Shown here: one piece after another, positions 932-33,924 of the stretch
Layout of the letters: every line of letters begins with the position of its first letter
Position numbering within the stretch: the first letter of the stretch is position 1
From: a virus
Reading direction: 5' to 3' (one strand)
Virus record (IMG/VR): IMGVR_UViG_3300032294_001228
Span: 1-64,000 of that record
Length of the DNA: 64,000 bases
The notes under the pieces: model-generated
Database searches by the model: none
Told to the model about the DNA's origin: nothing
The model's input: the letters and a program-made list of their open reading frames with translations, nothing else
Made by a program: the position numbers and the translations under genes

Positions 932-1008
932 GGGCCTATAGCTCAGTTGGTTAGAGCAGAGGACTCATAATCCTTTGGTCCCTGGTTCGAGTCCAGGTGG
1001 GCCCACCA
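932..1008 (+). tRNA. tRNA with CAT anticodon (Ile2 or Met)
   Basis: The 77-base gene has a 7-bp acceptor stem, encoded CCA, D-arm GCTCAGTTGGTTAGAGC, anticodon loop CTCATAA and T-loop TTCGAGT. The acceptor end GGGCCTA/TGGGCCC with discriminator A resembles bacterial tRNA-Ile(CAU), whose C34 is changed to lysidine so that it reads AUA. Elongator Met cannot be excluded from the sequence alone; no initiator-type C1-A72 mismatch is present. Confidence 0.93.
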
Positions 1009-1015
1009 AAGTAAT

Positions 1016-1091
1016 GCACCCATCGTCTAGAGGCCTAGGACATCGCCCTTTCACGGCGAGAACAGGGATTCGAATTCCCTTGGGTGTACCA
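1016..1091 (+). tRNA. tRNA-Glu(TTC)
   Basis: The 76-base gene has stem GCACCCA/TGGGTGT (first pair G-U), encoded CCA, anticodon stem TCGCC/GGCGA with loop CTTTCAC, and T-arm AGGGATTCGAATTCCCT. It lies 7 bases after the preceding tRNA. Confidence 0.93.
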
Positions 1092-1114
1092 GATTTTGTA
1101 GTAAATAGAGTAAC

Positions 1115-1199
1115 GCCGGCTTGCGCAGAGTGGGATTGCACCTGACTTGTAATCAGGCTTCGTAAGATAGAGAGTGTTCGATTCACTCAGCCGGCACCA
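1115..1199 (+). tRNA. tRNA-Thr(TGT), aberrant D-arm and variable region
   Basis: The acceptor GCCGGCT/AGCCGGC, discriminator A and encoded CCA match ordinary bacterial tRNA-Thr. The anticodon arm CCTGA-CTTGTAA-TCAGG gives anticodon TGT, and the T-arm GAGTG-TTCGATT-CACTC is intact. Two parts are odd: the D-stem can form only about three pairs (GCA/TGC), and the variable region between the anticodon and T stems is about 14 bases rather than 4-5. It may be a functional divergent tRNA, a decoy, or a decaying gene. Confidence 0.8.
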
Positions 1200-1205
1200 A
1201 ATAGT

Positions 1206-1282
1206 TGGGGATTCGCCAAGTTGGTTAAGGCATCGGATTTTGATTCCGACATTCCTAGGTTCGAATCCTAGATCCCCAGCCA
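1206..1282 (+). tRNA. tRNA-Gln(TTG)
   Basis: Acceptor TGGGGAT/ATCCCCA with discriminator G and encoded CCA, anticodon stem TCGGA/TCCGA with loop TTTTGAT, and T-arm CTAGGTTCGAATCCTAG. The weak U1-A72 pair is typical of bacterial tRNA-Gln. Confidence 0.93.
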
Positions 1283-1298
1283 AACACAGGAGAATAGT

Positions 1299-1439
1299 AT
1301 GTCTAAAGAATGGAAAGTAACATATAAAAAAACAGCTACAAGCAGAGAATTTTGGAAATTTTTTGAGTCTGAACAAAAGGCAAAAGTATTTGCAACTGTA
1401 CTCGGTGATCGTTGTGTAAGTATGAAAAAAATAGTATAA
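1299..1439 (+). CDS. 46-aa basic protein within the tRNA array
   Basis: ATG at 1299 is preceded by AGGAGA, and the 47-codon frame ends at 1439, ten bases before the next tRNA. The product (MSKEWKVTYKKTATSREFWK at the N terminus) is rich in Lys and aromatic residues, with no membrane segment. No family is recognised. Because it lies inside the tRNA transcript, its message would be freed by tRNA processing at both ends. Confidence 0.65.
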   Translation: MSKEWKVTYKKTATSREFWKFFESEQKAKVFATVLGDRCVSMKKIV

Positions 1440-1448
1440 TAAAGTTAC

Positions 1449-1533
1449 GCCCTGGTGGTGGAATTGGTAGACACACTGGTCTTAGAAGCCAGCGACGCGA
1501 GTCATGAGAGTTCGAGTCTCTCCTGGGGCACCA
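1449..1533 (+). tRNA. tRNA-Leu(TAG)
   Basis: The 85-base class II tRNA has anticodon arm CTGGT-CTTAGAA-GCCAG, a long variable arm, T-arm GAGAGTTCGAGTCTCTC and encoded CCA. The acceptor GCCCTGG/CTGGGGC contains two G-U wobble pairs. Confidence 0.92.
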
Positions 1534-1539
1534 AGTTTT

Positions 1540-1629
1540 GGAGAGTTGGCCGAGTGGTCGAAGGCAGCGGCTTGCTAAGCCGTCCTCCCAGTAATGGGAG
1601 CATAGGTTCGAATCCTATACTCTCCGCCA
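1540..1629 (+). tRNA. tRNA-Ser(GCT)
   Basis: The 90-base class II tRNA has acceptor GGAGAGT/ACTCTCC, discriminator G, encoded CCA, anticodon loop TTGCTAA and a long variable stem (CCTCCCAGTAATGGGAG). It is the last gene of the array. Confidence 0.93.
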
Positions 1630-1719: not shown

Positions 1720-2820
1720 ATGTCAAATAACTTCTGCCGGCACCTTAGTAACGGGTACAACATAGATGTCAAATGGGACAACACTCTCCAATGGAGGCCA
1801 TGCTGCCACTACGCCAAGAGTATTCCGTTACTTGATAAACAGGCAATAGAAAAAGAATTAGCATACACCTCTAGTGCAACTGGCTGGTTACCAGAATGCA
1901 GGGCCTGTCAGCAAATGGAAAATAGCGAAGCCAGTGCTACACATTCCCCTCGTATCTTTAGTTTTTATCGAAATCCTACTGAGCTAGAAACTGGTGAGTG
2001 CGGTTCATTGCAATTAAGCTTCGATGCAAGCTGCAATGCAGCCTGTTTAAGTTGCGGAAGTTACATCAGTGACACCTGGAAAAAATACGAGTACAAGCAT
2101 GGCATACGCGATATCGGACCGATAATCAATCACGCGGATAGACTAGCAGATCAGTTAATAGCTAACGTTGCAATGGACAAACTTGACGAGATTTTCATTC
2201 TAGGCGGAGAACCGTTTTACAGCGGATCTGGCAACAAAATTTTACGGCATTTACGAAACACCCACCCAGACATCAGTAAAGTCAAGCTACGATATCAAAC
2301 CAATGGTAGCATTATTCCGGATTTAGAAACCAGGGCCCTGTGGGAGGGGTTTGGCTCACTAGCAATCGGTTTTAGTCTCGACGGTGTCGGGGAAAGATTT
2401 GACTATCTGCGGTGGCCGCTTAAATGGACTAAAGTTGAGCAAACGGTTGCGAATATTCTAGAAACCACAAACGCTATAGTTACCACCAATTGTACTATTA
2501 ATCCGTTTAACGGTTTGTACTTTCAAGAAATAGTCGACTGGGCAACAGCAACTATTCCAGCGAATAGACGCAGATGGCTGGATCACCCTGTTCGCCCCAA
2601 TAGAGCAAATGGAATACTCGATCTTAATAAGACACCAATGGCTCTCAGAGAAGATATTATTAAAACCTATGGAGTCGATCATATATTGTCTAAAATTATT
2701 TCTAATTTAGAATTTTCTAACAACGCCCAAGAGATGCTTGACTACGTTAGCTTACATGATCAAATTCGTAAGCTCGACTGGAGGAGAACATTCCCTGACG
2801 TAGTAAAGTATTTTGCATAG
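1720..2820 (+). CDS. Radical SAM protein with N-terminal cysteine domain
   Basis: The 366-aa protein has the radical SAM cluster motif C105-x3-C109-x2-C112 (SCNAACLSC), which binds the [4Fe-4S] centre that cleaves S-adenosylmethionine, and a GGEPF motif at about residue 162 that contacts SAM. Four further cysteines (28, 29, 60, 63) in the N-terminal part could hold an auxiliary cluster. It is a paralog of the protein at 24545-25663: both have a CC pair near the N terminus and a YxRWPxKW segment. The substrate is unknown; the surface-chemistry context suggests modification of a sugar or protein. No Shine-Dalgarno is seen and the late promoter abuts the ATG, so a leaderless message is likely. 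Confidence 0.88.
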   Translation: MSNNFCRHLSNGYNIDVKWDNTLQWRPCCHYAKSIPLLDKQAIEKELAYTSSATGWLPECRACQQMENSEASATHSPRIFSFYRNPTELETGECGSLQLSFDASCNAACLSCGSYISDTWKKYEYKHGIRDIGPIINHADRLADQLIANVAMDKLDEIFILGGEPFYSGSGNKILRHLRNTHPDISKVKLRYQTNGSIIPDLETRALWEGFGSLAIGFSLDGVGERFDYLRWPLKWTKVEQTVANILETTNAIVTTNCTINPFNGLYFQEIVDWATATIPANRRRWLDHPVRPNRANGILDLNKTPMALREDIIKTYGVDHILSKIISNLEFSNNAQEMLDYVSLHDQIRKLDWRRTFPDVVKYFA

Positions 2821-24282: not shown

Positions 24283-24536
24283 CAGTGAAAGAAATGAAAC
24301 TAAATGATGACTTCGTTTACAACAACGAAGAAGAAGCAGAAATGGGTCAGCTACATGCTATCCATAACAACATGAATGCTATTGCCAATGTTCGCCGACA
24401 ATTAGAACAGCAGGCGGCACAACCCAGTCTCACACACTGCGAAGAATGTGGCGAGGAGATTCCTAAAAAACGTCAGGAATTAATCAAGGGAGTACGTCTT
24501 TGTGTTTTCTGTCAGCAGATGCACGAACGTCGTTAA
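24279..24536 (+). CDS. DksA/TraR-type C4 zinc-finger protein
   Basis: The 85-aa protein has a helical N terminus and C54-x2-C57-x17-C75-x2-C78 (HCEECGEEIPKKRQ then RLCVFCQ), the spacing of the DksA/TraR zinc finger. Short TraR-like members bind the RNA polymerase secondary channel and change promoter choice. It sits in an early-type operon, which fits a role in steering host transcription. The start overlaps the previous stop (ATGA). Confidence 0.85.
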   Translation: MTVKEMKLNDDFVYNNEEEAEMGQLHAIHNNMNAIANVRRQLEQQAAQPSLTHCEECGEEIPKKRQELIKGVRLCVFCQQMHERR

Positions 24537-24544
24537 ATATTGTA

Positions 24545-25663
24545 ATGGAACATATATGTTATCATCCTTGGGTAGGATTAGATATTAGTCCTCAGGGTGA
24601 ATTTAAACCTTGTTGTAAATATCAAAAAACCATTGATACTTCCTTAGCTGGATATTTAAATAATAAAGAATTAATTCGACTTAAAGAAGATTTTTTAGAA
24701 GGTAAACGTCCCATTGAGTGCAAACGATGTTGGGATGATGAGGATGCTGGATTGCCTAGTAAAAGACAGTTGGATTGGAAATATATTTTCCATGAACAGT
24801 CTCCTGGCTGGGATCCTATTAAAGTATTAAGTTTGCCTTTTGGAAACTCATGCAATCTGGCCTGCAGAACATGTAATAGTTCTGCTTCAAGCGGATGGAT
24901 TTCTGAAGCTAAAAAATTACAAAAGCATTTACCAGAAACAATAATTTATAAACATCAAAAATTTTATCAAGACAAGAAGTTTATTGATCAAATTAAATCG
25001 CTGTGTTTAGATGTATTACATATACAATTTCCAGGTGGTGAACCATTCCTTGCTGGCATTGAAGAACACTTAGATTTTTTAAATTTTTTATTAGAACATA
25101 ATCCACAAAATATAAGTCTACACTATATGACTAATGCAACTATATTCCCTAGCCAAAAATTTTGGGATAAATGGATAAAATTTAAAAATGTTGATATTCA
25201 GTTAAGTATTGATGGAACAGATCAACAATTTGAATATATCAGATGGCCTGCTAAATGGTCACAAGTCAATGAAAATATACAACGAGTCACAATTGAAAAA
25301 AAAGACAATATACAAATTAGTATCAGTCATACAGTAAGTATTTTTAATGTGTTGTATTTGCCAGAATTTATTAAATGGTGCCTACAAAATAACCTTGGCA
25401 AACCATATTTAGGATTAGTATCAAATCCGACAATGTATTCTATAAAAGCACTACCAAGAAAAGTCAAACAATCGATTAGTGATAAATTAAATAGATTTAT
25501 GTTTAAAGAAGTAGTATCATATATGAATAGTGAAGATTTAAGCTGTGAATTTAGTACCGCGATTAAACATATACAGCTAGTAGACCAACAAAGAAAACAA
25601 AATTTTAAAGATATATTTCCGGAACTTTATCAACTTTTAAAGGAAGCAGAATGCCAAATTTAG
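24545..25663 (+). CDS. Radical SAM protein with N-terminal cysteine domain
   Basis: The 372-aa protein has C103-x3-C107-x2-C110 (SCNLACRTC) and FPGGEPFL. Its N terminus [20 protein letters not shown] resembles a SPASM-like cysteine domain placed before, not after, the barrel, as in the paralog at 1720-2820. ATG 24545 is preferred to an upstream in-frame start at 24500, which lies inside the zinc-finger gene. Its end overlaps clpP by 13 bases. The substrate is unknown. Confidence 0.87.
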
Positions 25664-26244
25664 TGCCAATGGTGTTAGAACGTACCAGCCAGGGTGAACG
25701 TAGTTATGACTTATATTCAAGACTATTAAAAGATCGTATAGTTATGTTAGATACGGATGTTAATGAACATTCAGCAAGTTTAATCGTAGCACAGTTATTG
25801 TTCTTGGAGAGTGAAGATGCCAATAAAGACATCCTATTTTATATTAACAGTCCTGGTGGCGTTGTCACTGCTGGTATGGCTATTTACGACACAATGCAGT
25901 TTATTAAGCCTGACGTGTCAACCATCGTCATGGGGCAGGCTTGTAGCATGGGTTCCTTATTGGCTAGTAGTGGTGCTCAAGGCAAGCGTATGATCCTTCC
26001 TAATGCTCGTCACATGATACATCAACCTAGTGGTGGTGCTGGCGGGCAAGCTACTGACATGGAAATCCAGGTTAACGAAATCCTTAAGATGAAAAAGACG
26101 TTAACGCAGATCTACGTAGATCACAACTCAAAGGGTAAAACTTTTGAAGAGCTGTCTAAAGACATGGAAAGAGATAATTTCATGTCAGCACAAGAAGCCA
26201 TAGACTATGGCCTAGCTGATGAAATTGTACAAAAACGCACATAA
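25651..26244 (+). CDS. clpP: ClpP protease subunit
   Basis: The 197-aa protein has the ClpP triad S99 ([12 protein letters not shown]), H124 ([10 protein letters not shown]) and D175 (MERDNFMSA), plus [18 protein letters not shown]. Length and motif order are those of a normal bacterial ClpP with a very short propeptide. It would need a host unfoldase (ClpX or ClpA), since none is seen here. The window also encodes a tmRNA whose tag ends AVAA, a ClpXP-type degron. Its start overlaps the radical SAM gene; a terminator follows. Confidence 0.95.
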
Positions 26245-28052: not shown

Positions 28053-28194
28053 ACGTGCAGGATGTCTAATGTGCAAGCCAAACAAAATGAATGGCTCAAA
28101 CAAAGATCAACTTGGACACACAGGATTTGGTAAGTTAAAGAAAACTATATTGTCAAAGTTGGATCTAAGGCAGTATATAAAAGAATTGTTGTAA
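28021..28194 (+). CDS. 57-aa basic protein with CxxC
   Basis: ATG 28021 starts a 57-aa frame (MNHKRKRPKNRRAGCLMCKP) with one CxxC and an Arg/Lys-rich N terminus, suggesting RNA or DNA binding. It ends one base before the tmRNA acceptor part. The pattern of a basic stretch then GCLMCKP recalls small phage hypotheticals. Confidence 0.55.
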   Translation: MNHKRKRPKNRRAGCLMCKPNKMNGSNKDQLGHTGFGKLKKTILSKLDLRQYIKELL

Positions 28195-28195
28195 T

Positions 28196-28490
28196 CCCTT
28201 CGATGTGAAGGCATGTTGGACGGCGGTTCGATTCCGCCCATCTCCACCAAAGTATTTTAGCGATAGAGTTTTTTATTGGGGATGACCAGGTTTCGACAGC
28301 GTGAGCTAGCAAAGACGGCAACACGAGAGTTGACTGACGTAATCAGCAAAAATCTCTAGATGCAAAAACATCTAAACTTGGTACTGTTAAAGTAGCAATG
28401 GGCAAAAACTTCCGTTTTGGCTCACGCACTGAGGCAGTAGCGGCCTAAGAAACCGCAACCACGGGGTAGCTATACCTTGTCACCCAAAAT
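28196..28490 (+). ncRNA. ssrA: Circularly permuted (two-piece) tmRNA gene
   Basis: The acceptor piece comes first: T-arm GGCGG-TTCGATT-CCGCC (222-238 after 28000), then CATCTCC (28239-28245), A and CCA (28247-28249). After a 28-base spacer the other end begins GGGGATG (28278-28284), which pairs with CATCTCC; the third pair is the G-U that alanyl-tRNA synthetase needs. A tag frame runs 28395-28448: resume codon GCA, then AMGKNFRFGSRTEAVAA and TAA. Tags ending in two alanines are ClpXP degrons. Permuted ssrA genes are known in alphaproteobacteria, cyanobacteria and some betaproteobacteria. The outer borders of the mature pieces are approximate; the spacer should be removed by RNases. Confidence 0.9.
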
Positions 28491-28493
28491 AGT

Positions 28494-28522
28494 AGAAAGC
28501 CCTTGATTGGGCTTTCTTTTTG
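28494..28522 (+). terminator. Rho-independent terminator of tmRNA
   Basis: AGAAAGCCC (28494-28502) pairs with GGGCTTTCT (28509-28517) around TTGATT, followed by TTTT. Confidence 0.85.
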
Positions 28523-28534
28523 ACAAAAAGTCGA

Positions 28535-28563
28535 TTGACTTTTGGTTAAAATCATGCTATAAT
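28535..28563 (+). promoter_or_regulatory. Sigma70 promoter with extended -10
   Basis: TTGACT (28535-28540), 17 bases with GGTTAAA and ending TGC, TATAAT (28558-28563). Predicted start 28570, which is the A of an ATG. Confidence 0.8.

Positions 28564-31996: not shown

Positions 31997-33924
<1,928 letters not shown>

What the first reader, a model, noticed from the sequence alone, without database searches (positions are those of the whole stretch)
28196..28522. Phage-borne circularly permuted tmRNA with an AVAA degron tag
The acceptor half (T-arm, CATCTCC, CCA) lies upstream of the GGGGATG half and the tag frame. The acceptor pairing, the G-U third pair, the T-arm, the resume GCA and a 17-codon tag ending AVAA-stop are all visible. 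Permuted ssrA is known from a few bacterial lineages. A phage copy, beside a phage clpP 2 kb away, suggests the phage tags and destroys stalled products itself, or rescues ribosomes on its many leaderless or broken messages. It also points to a host lineage with permuted ssrA.
Basis: partly seen in the sequence, partly recalled or inferred. Interest (0 to 1): 0.88.

Follow-up and report, generated by a model that had tools for sequence, protein, structure and literature searches.

The report
Phage permuted tmRNA, hairpin-bearing long tag
This virus of bacteria carries its own two-piece ribosome-rescue RNA, a known kind of gene, but it belongs to a large group found here only in phages whose degradation tag is nearly three times the usual length and contains a conserved RNA hairpin inside the translated stretch, in phages that often also encode the ClpA, ClpP and ClpS parts of a protein-shredding machine.

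Summary
The locus is real: Rfam beta_tmRNA (147.7 bits), tmRNA_permuted (124.5 bits) and ARAGORN all call a circularly permuted tmRNA. The resume codon is GCA at 28362, so the tag has 28 codons (AKTSKLGTVKVAMGKNFRFGSRTEAVAA), not 17.

Phage-borne permuted tmRNA is already published (Melnitz paper, PMC9004378). The tmRNA type does not identify the host: phages of Pseudomonas, Stenotrophomonas and Acinetobacter carry it too.

What looks new is the tag. In an IMG/VR sample seeded only on the T-arm, 23 of 32 tmRNAs have 26-31-codon tags. The long tags fall into at least four families. The two that I scanned for occur in at least 26 and 120 viral contigs and in no tmRNA among 84,980 bacterial and archaeal genomes. 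Their frames are under protein-level constraint and also fold into an RNA hairpin inside the translated frame, supported by covariation beyond an amino-acid-preserving null (strong in family B, modest in the window's family A).

This phage also encodes ClpP (2 kb upstream), a ClpA with an intact IGF docking loop beside DnaJ, and GroEL. ClpS occurs in most relatives; SmpB was found in none. Most likely it performs trans-translation with host SmpB and hands products to ClpAP/ClpXP. That routing, and the hairpin's role, are inferred.

The parts
28157..28539 (+). Permuted (two-piece) tmRNA gene, ARAGORN call; Rfam beta_tmRNA hit 28136-28424, tmRNA_permuted hit 28187-28448
28187..28249 (+). Acceptor piece: 5' part of the tRNA-like long stem, T-arm (28222-28238), 3' acceptor strand CATCTCC (28239-28245), discriminator A and encoded CCA (28246-28249)
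28250..28277 (+). 28-nt intervening segment expected to be removed on processing
   Evidence: processing inferred from known two-piece tmRNAs
28278..28361 (+). Coding piece 5' end: GGGGATG acceptor strand (28278-28284, third pair G-U), D-arm analogue, PK1-like region up to the resume codon
28362..28445 (+). Tag reading frame, 28 codons, AKTSKLGTVKVAMGKNFRFGSRTEAVAA (family A long tag)
28382..28439 (+). RNA hairpin inside the translated frame (inner stem 28399-28409 / 28414-28424, loop 28410-28413)
28440..28456 (+). Stop-codon hairpin (H5-like): GCGG 28440-28443 / CCGC 28453-28456, stop TAA 28446-28448 in the loop
28461..28480 (+). Downstream hairpin (ACGGGGUA/UACCUUGU type) shared with long-tag relatives
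28494..28523 (+). Terminator-like stem (AGAAAGCCC..GGGCTTTCT, 28494-28517) followed by a T run on the + strand
   Evidence: the scan reports the stem on the - strand; the + strand T run was read directly
25651..26244 (+). ClpP, 197 aa, catalytic Ser/His/Asp motifs conserved
   Evidence: PF00574 266.8 bits; PDB ClpP 8r05 E=1.4e-77; alignment
32299..33924 (+). Phage GroEL (chaperonin)
   Evidence: PF00118 E=9e-76, phrog_5725 E=5e-180

Best explanation
A genuine phage-encoded, circularly permuted tmRNA that works in trans-translation. From known tmRNA biology (inferred for this gene): the precursor is cut by tRNA-processing enzymes into an acceptor piece and a coding piece, charged with alanine through the G-U acceptor pair, loaded with host SmpB, and used to rescue stalled ribosomes during infection. 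Shown here by sequence: the rescued chain would receive a 28-residue tag ending AVAA. The tag belongs to a set of long tags found here only in phages, which look like the normal 10-codon frame with about 18 codons inserted. The insert is constrained both as peptide and as an in-frame RNA hairpin. Inferred: tagged chains are degraded by Clp proteases, including the phage's own ClpA-ClpP, with the extension serving as an extended handle or specificity element for that unfoldase, while the hairpin structures the otherwise single-stranded tag region of a two-piece RNA.
For: Covariance models and ARAGORN. Same resume context and frame in the relatives. T-arm-seeded sample without tag ascertainment: 23 of 32 tags are 26-31 aa. 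Long-tag motifs occur only inside permuted tmRNA frames in IMG/VR and in no tmRNA among 84,980 bacterial/archaeal genomes. dN/dS in the tag-unascertained sample 0.29 (B) and 0.58 (A). RNA hairpin: canonical pairs and covariation exceed all 500 amino-acid-preserving shuffles in A28, B28, B31 and slid partners; the same test on ClpP windows gives at most z 3.4, against 3.7-8.2 for the tags. ClpP of 200 bits or more: family A 14/14, always 1.3-4.7 kb upstream on the same strand; short-tag or cultured phages 0/28. ClpA: all eight family A contigs of at least 110 kb, 0/14 short-tag contigs. ClpA has both Walker motifs, the GYVG pore loop and the IGF docking loop. ClpS in 13 of 16 long-tag records.
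Against: No RNA or protein data. The Clp association may be shared ancestry of one jumbo-phage group: family B gives 5/14 for strong ClpP, families C/D 0/5, and cultured Phosso has ClpA, ClpP and ClpS with a 13-aa tag. Protein constraint in family A outside the core is weak (N-terminal ratio 0.81). The hairpin signal in family A (z 3.7-3.8) is only slightly above the highest control window (3.4). In E. coli, ClpS is known to steer ClpAP away from ssrA-tagged substrates (own knowledge), which complicates a ClpAP route in relatives with ClpS. No SmpB was found (many records are fragments).
Confidence: 0.7

Rival explanations
1. The long tag exists only because an RNA structural element (hairpin) was inserted in the frame; the peptide it encodes is a by-product and degradation still depends only on the last few residues (AVAA/ALAA).
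For: Covariation in which amino acid 19 (S/T/A) follows the wobble base of Gly in family B (pair 45-55: AT14, TA8, TG5, CG5). Folds are more stable than synonymous recodings, mean z about -1.1, and -2.4 for the window. Hairpin sequences differ between families A, B and C while a hairpin itself persists.
Against: Protein-level constraint in B (dN/dS 0.29 unascertained; several residues invariant with silent change, though part of them were fixed by the search pattern) and a KV-x-MG-xx-FRF core in A.
Confidence: 0.4
2. Orthogonal degron: the extension is recognised specifically by the phage's ClpA (or an adaptor), so phage-tagged proteins are routed to phage ClpAP rather than to host ClpXP.
For: Family A: ClpP 14/14 and close upstream, ClpA in all contigs of at least 110 kb; none of the 14 short-tag contigs tested has ClpA. 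IGF loop kept in phage ClpA. Precedent: Mesoplasma florum's long tag is read by its own Lon and poorly by others (PMC8138137).
Against: Clade confounding. Families C/D lack strong ClpP and ClpA; family B contig G017 has ClpA but no ClpP match. Phosso combines ClpAP with a short tag.
Confidence: 0.3
3. A passenger: the phage picked up ssrA with a host segment, and it is degenerate or unexpressed.
For: tmRNA genes are common integration sites and phages can pick up fragments (discussed in PMC9004378).
Against: Complete acceptor, T-arm, CCA, PK1-like region, resume and stop; conserved frame with purifying selection; the long-tag form is absent from the bacterial genomes searched, so it is not a recent host copy.
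Confidence: 0.05
4. Chance or annotation artefact: ARAGORN merely ran past the true stop or started too early.
For: ARAGORN missed or misread a few loci (e.g. L126, L173).
Against: The frame runs from the conserved resume context to the H5-like stop hairpin in well over a hundred relatives; the short-tag controls are read as 10 aa in nearly every case by the same program; Rfam alignments agree.
Confidence: 0.02

Closest known systems
Betaproteobacterial two-piece tmRNA (Rfam RF01850 beta_tmRNA; RF04321 tmRNA_permuted)
   Same: Permuted order, tRNA-like domain with CCA, G-U acceptor pair, resume context, stop-codon hairpin; scores above both gathering thresholds
   Different: 28-codon tag with an internal hairpin; the most frequent tag length is 10 aa (PMC11915505)
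Phage two-piece tmRNAs (Methylophilales phage Melnitz, Pelagibacter phage Mosig; 53 in INPHARED by ARAGORN, PMC9004378); cultured DLP6, SM1, XacN1, Menderavirus, BUCT628
   Same: Permuted ssrA on a lytic phage genome
   Different: The cultured ones read here have 12-14 aa tags and no long-tag family; the passages of the Melnitz paper that I read do not discuss tag length
Mesoplasma florum ssrA tag / mf-Lon
   Same: Long tmRNA tag, tag-protease specificity pair
   Different: Mollicute tmRNA, Lon not Clp; no hairpin in the frame that I know of; not phage
Clp sets of Rak2-like jumbo phages (Agrobacterium phage Atu_ph07, Sinorhizobium phages Phosso and AP-J-162)
   Same: Phage DnaJ-ClpA gene pair, ClpP, ClpS; Phosso also has a permuted tmRNA (alpha type), AP-J-162 a tmRNA
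   Different: Atu_ph07 has no tmRNA hit; Phosso's tag is short (ANDNVSTKVALAA, 13 aa)

Membership tests
tmRNA (permuted form) | Acceptor half with CCA upstream of the coding half | tested here: met
   RF04321 1-213 full length 124.5 bits, RF01850 1-331 full length 147.7 bits; coordinates
tmRNA (permuted form) | Acceptor stem with G-U third pair for alanine charging | tested here: met
   GGGGATG / CATCTCC, third pair G-U; charging itself not testable
tmRNA (permuted form) | Tag frame from a conserved resume codon to a stop in the H5 hairpin, ending in a small hydrophobic degron | tested here: met
   GCA 28362 to TAA 28446, ends AVAA; stop hairpin GCGG/CCGC
tmRNA (permuted form) | Tag of about 10 codons (typical, not obligatory) | tested here: not met
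   28 codons; 23/32 in the T-arm-seeded phage sample are 26-31
tmRNA (permuted form) | Processing to two mature pieces, SmpB binding, ribosome rescue | not testable with these tools
   No RNA or biochemical data; no SmpB in 29 viral records
Betaproteobacterial two-piece subtype | Best match to RF01850 rather than alpha or cyano models | tested here: met
   Only beta_tmRNA and tmRNA_permuted reported over threshold for the window
Bacterial-type ClpAP protease | ClpP with catalytic Ser-His-Asp | tested here: met
   PF00574 267 bits; [13 protein letters not shown], ERDxFMS motifs aligned to PDB ClpP
Bacterial-type ClpAP protease | Unfoldase with two AAA modules and IGF/IGL ClpP-docking loop | tested here: met
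   G000 72212-74530, 772 aa: AAA, AAA_lid_9, AAA_2, ClpB_D2-small, two Walker A/B, IGF at 623
Bacterial-type ClpAP protease | Degrades ssrA-tagged protein | not testable with these tools
   Needs purified proteins

The most novel reading that the evidence does not exclude
A phage-specific class of tmRNA in which a translated RNA hairpin was built into the tag frame to encode an extended degron read preferentially by phage-encoded ClpA(S)P, giving the phage its own trans-translation-to-proteolysis channel, with tag cassettes exchanged between phages near the resume codon.
Probability: 0.3. Interest if true: 0.88.

Novelty: new variant of a known kind. Interest (0 to 1): 0.7.

Why it matters
Why lytic phages carry tmRNA is an open question. 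A large phage-only set of long, doubly constrained tags (peptide and in-frame RNA fold), often in phages with their own ClpA, ClpP and ClpS, suggests that the phages are not merely copying host rescue but have rewritten the tag. That makes the question testable with reporters and purified ClpAP, and may supply orthogonal degron-protease pairs. It also suggests that the tag frame of tmRNA can accommodate a stable hairpin, which the Rfam models used here do not represent.

Tried and rejected
A 17-codon tag (reader): rejected, the resume codon is at 28362. Host inference from tmRNA type: rejected, gammaproteobacterial phages carry permuted tmRNA. Tag mimics a phage protein: rejected at motif level, all viral hits of the two motifs are tmRNA frames. 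Long tags inherited from bacteria: no tmRNA hit in 84,980 genomes. Phage SmpB: none. tblastn of two tags against INPHARED phages: none. ClpP presence alone as a link to long tags: weak, since about 100-bit ClpP-like genes are common in short-tag phages too; only bacterial-grade ClpP and ClpA separate them. Acinetobacter phage MD-2021a hits were set aside as apparent bacterial contigs (clpX, trigger factor, argC). Finding the bacterial host and Burkholderiales reference tags through the genome search failed for lack of a suitable centre genome.

Full report
Observation. The sequence at 28157-28539 (+) is a circularly permuted tmRNA. ARAGORN calls tmRNA*. Rfam gives full-length hits to beta_tmRNA (147.7 bits, gathering 84) and tmRNA_permuted (124.5 bits, gathering 47). 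The tag is not. The relatives, and both models, place the resume codon in the context ..UARAUGCA, here GCA 28362, so the tag is AKTSKLGTVKVAMGKNFRFGSRTEAVAA, 28 codons, with the stop in an H5-like hairpin.

Novelty of the basic finding. Two-piece tmRNA in phages is published: Melnitz encodes one, and 53 two-piece tmRNAs were counted among 18,146 phage genomes, 50 of them from marine or aquatic samples (PMC9004378). Cultured phages read here with permuted tmRNA include DLP6, SM1, XacN1, BUCTxx99, BUCT628 and Menderavirus, all with 12-14 aa tags. Several infect gammaproteobacteria; of 274 sampled genomes of that class only one has a beta-type permuted tmRNA over cut-off. The permuted form therefore does not identify the host.

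The unusual feature. A scan of IMG/VR with the exact T-arm 30-mer, blind to the tag, gave 32 tmRNAs including the window's: 8 tags of 10 aa, 1 of 13, and 23 of 26-31 aa. The long tags fall into families: A (..KVxMGxxFRF..EAVAA, the window's), B (ANADTFDFSAMSFTGNTV..ALAA), C (..FKFYEVDVAVNDSKFALAA, 23 aa) and D (24 aa). Patterns for A and B found 26 and at least 120 viral contigs. Every A and B match lay in a tmRNA tag frame, counting those where ARAGORN made no call but the frame ends in the same tag or runs off the contig. No tmRNA carried them in one genome for each of 84,980 bacterial and archaeal species: 0 hits for A; 10 hits for B, all in other sequence. A control scan for 10-aa tags returned permuted tmRNAs read by ARAGORN as 10 aa in nearly every case.

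Peptide constraint. In the tag-unascertained sample dN/dS is 0.29 for B (0.26 in the extension) and 0.58 for A (0.63 in the extension). In the full sets the inner motifs are nearly invariant in amino acids with silent change, but those motifs were partly fixed by the search pattern.

RNA constraint. The long-tag frames that I folded form a long hairpin within the translated stretch; in the window the inner stem is 28399-28409 / 28414-28424 with loop 28410-28413. The folds are more stable than synonymous recodings (family mean z about -0.9 to -1.8; window z -2.37; 10-aa controls -0.31). With codons shuffled only among identical amino acids, no shuffle of 500 reached the observed paired fraction or covariation in A28, B28 or B31. 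In B, a glycine codon's third base and residue 19's first base covary through AT, TA, TG and CG. Sliding the partners by 1-3 columns destroys the signal. The same test on ClpP windows of these phages gave z up to 3.4, against 3.7-3.8 for A, 6.3-8.2 for B28 and 4.8-4.9 for B31. So the hairpin is well supported in B and modestly in A, where only nine distinct 28-codon sequences were available. The three sequences of family C were too few to test.

Modularity. Similar coding-piece bodies carry different tags (A and B at 94% body identity; short and B at 88-92%), as if tag cassettes were exchanged near the resume codon.

Proteolysis genes. The window's clpP (25651-26244) is a complete bacterial-type ClpP. 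In all 14 family A records, including the window's, a ClpP of 200 bits or more lies upstream on the same strand, 1.3-4.7 kb away where I compared coordinates. Family B has such a ClpP in 5 of 14 records tested, C/D in 0 of 5, and short-tag or cultured records in 0 of 28. Weaker ClpP-like genes (about 100 bits) are common everywhere. The record also carries a 772-aa ClpA-like protein (72212-74530) directly after DnaJ, with both AAA modules, the GYVG pore loop and the IGF docking loop. ClpA is present in all eight family A contigs of at least 110 kb, in both large family B contigs, and in none of 14 short-tag IMG/VR contigs or five cultured phages with 12-14 aa tags. ClpS is in 13 of 16 long-tag records (not found in the window's own 118,684-base record, which may be a fragment) and in none of seven short-tag contigs. 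SmpB was found in no viral record. The DnaJ-ClpA pair is shared with Rak2-like jumbo phages such as Atu_ph07, and with Phosso (PMC6102473). Phosso combines ClpA, ClpP, ClpS and an alpha-type permuted tmRNA with a 13-aa tag, so Clp genes and long tags are not strictly linked, and shared ancestry may explain the association.

Mechanism. Shown by sequence: gene anatomy, tag, hairpin, Clp genes. From established tmRNA biology: processing to two pieces, alanine charging, SmpB-dependent rescue, degradation through the C-terminal AVAA. Inferred: host SmpB is used; phage ClpAP shares in or takes over degradation; the extension is a specificity handle and the hairpin organises the tag region. Peptide-driven, RNA-driven and combined explanations remain open.

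Verdict. The finding as written is partly right and already known in kind; the long, hairpin-bearing, phage-only tag is a new variant as far as the literature available here shows. Two caveats: only open-access papers were searchable, and supplementary tables (for example Table S1 of PMC9004378) could not be read.

Noticed in passing
G000 72212-74530 (L367:8212-10530) and L367:7344-8201: ClpA-like unfoldase directly downstream of a phage DnaJ, the same pair as in jumbo phages Atu_ph07 and PA5oct; in Phosso a peptide deformylase gene lies between the two.
   Followed up: partly
window 31997-33924: Phage GroEL (541 aa) preceded by a 96-aa ORF in the position of GroES (not tested); the phage carries GroEL, DnaJ, ClpA and ClpP, a broad proteostasis set.
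   Followed up: partly
window 932-1629: Cluster of six tRNA genes (Met, Glu, Thr, Gln, Leu, Ser).
   Followed up: no
window 1720-2820 and 24500-25663: Two radical-SAM proteins matching the same PHROG (14086), one directly upstream of clpP.
   Followed up: no
G015, G021, G022, G324 ClpP-like genes: Divergent ClpP-like matches with one in-frame TAA in large phage contigs; recoding, split gene or tool edge effect not resolved.
   Followed up: no
L174/L395 (Xanthomonas phage XacN1, 36047-36205 of record): Two adjacent CTA-anticodon (suppressor-like) tRNA genes about 1 kb upstream of its permuted tmRNA; the tmRNA occurs twice in the record.
   Followed up: no
L043: A second IMG/VR contig carries exactly the window's 28-aa tag, although ARAGORN does not call it.
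   Followed up: partly
L309, L339-L342 (unnamed gammaproteobacterial genomes): A few genomes of one order carry permuted tmRNA (two beta-type with tag ANDDNFEVALAA, two alpha-like) while most of that order do not; possibly prophage-borne.
   Followed up: no
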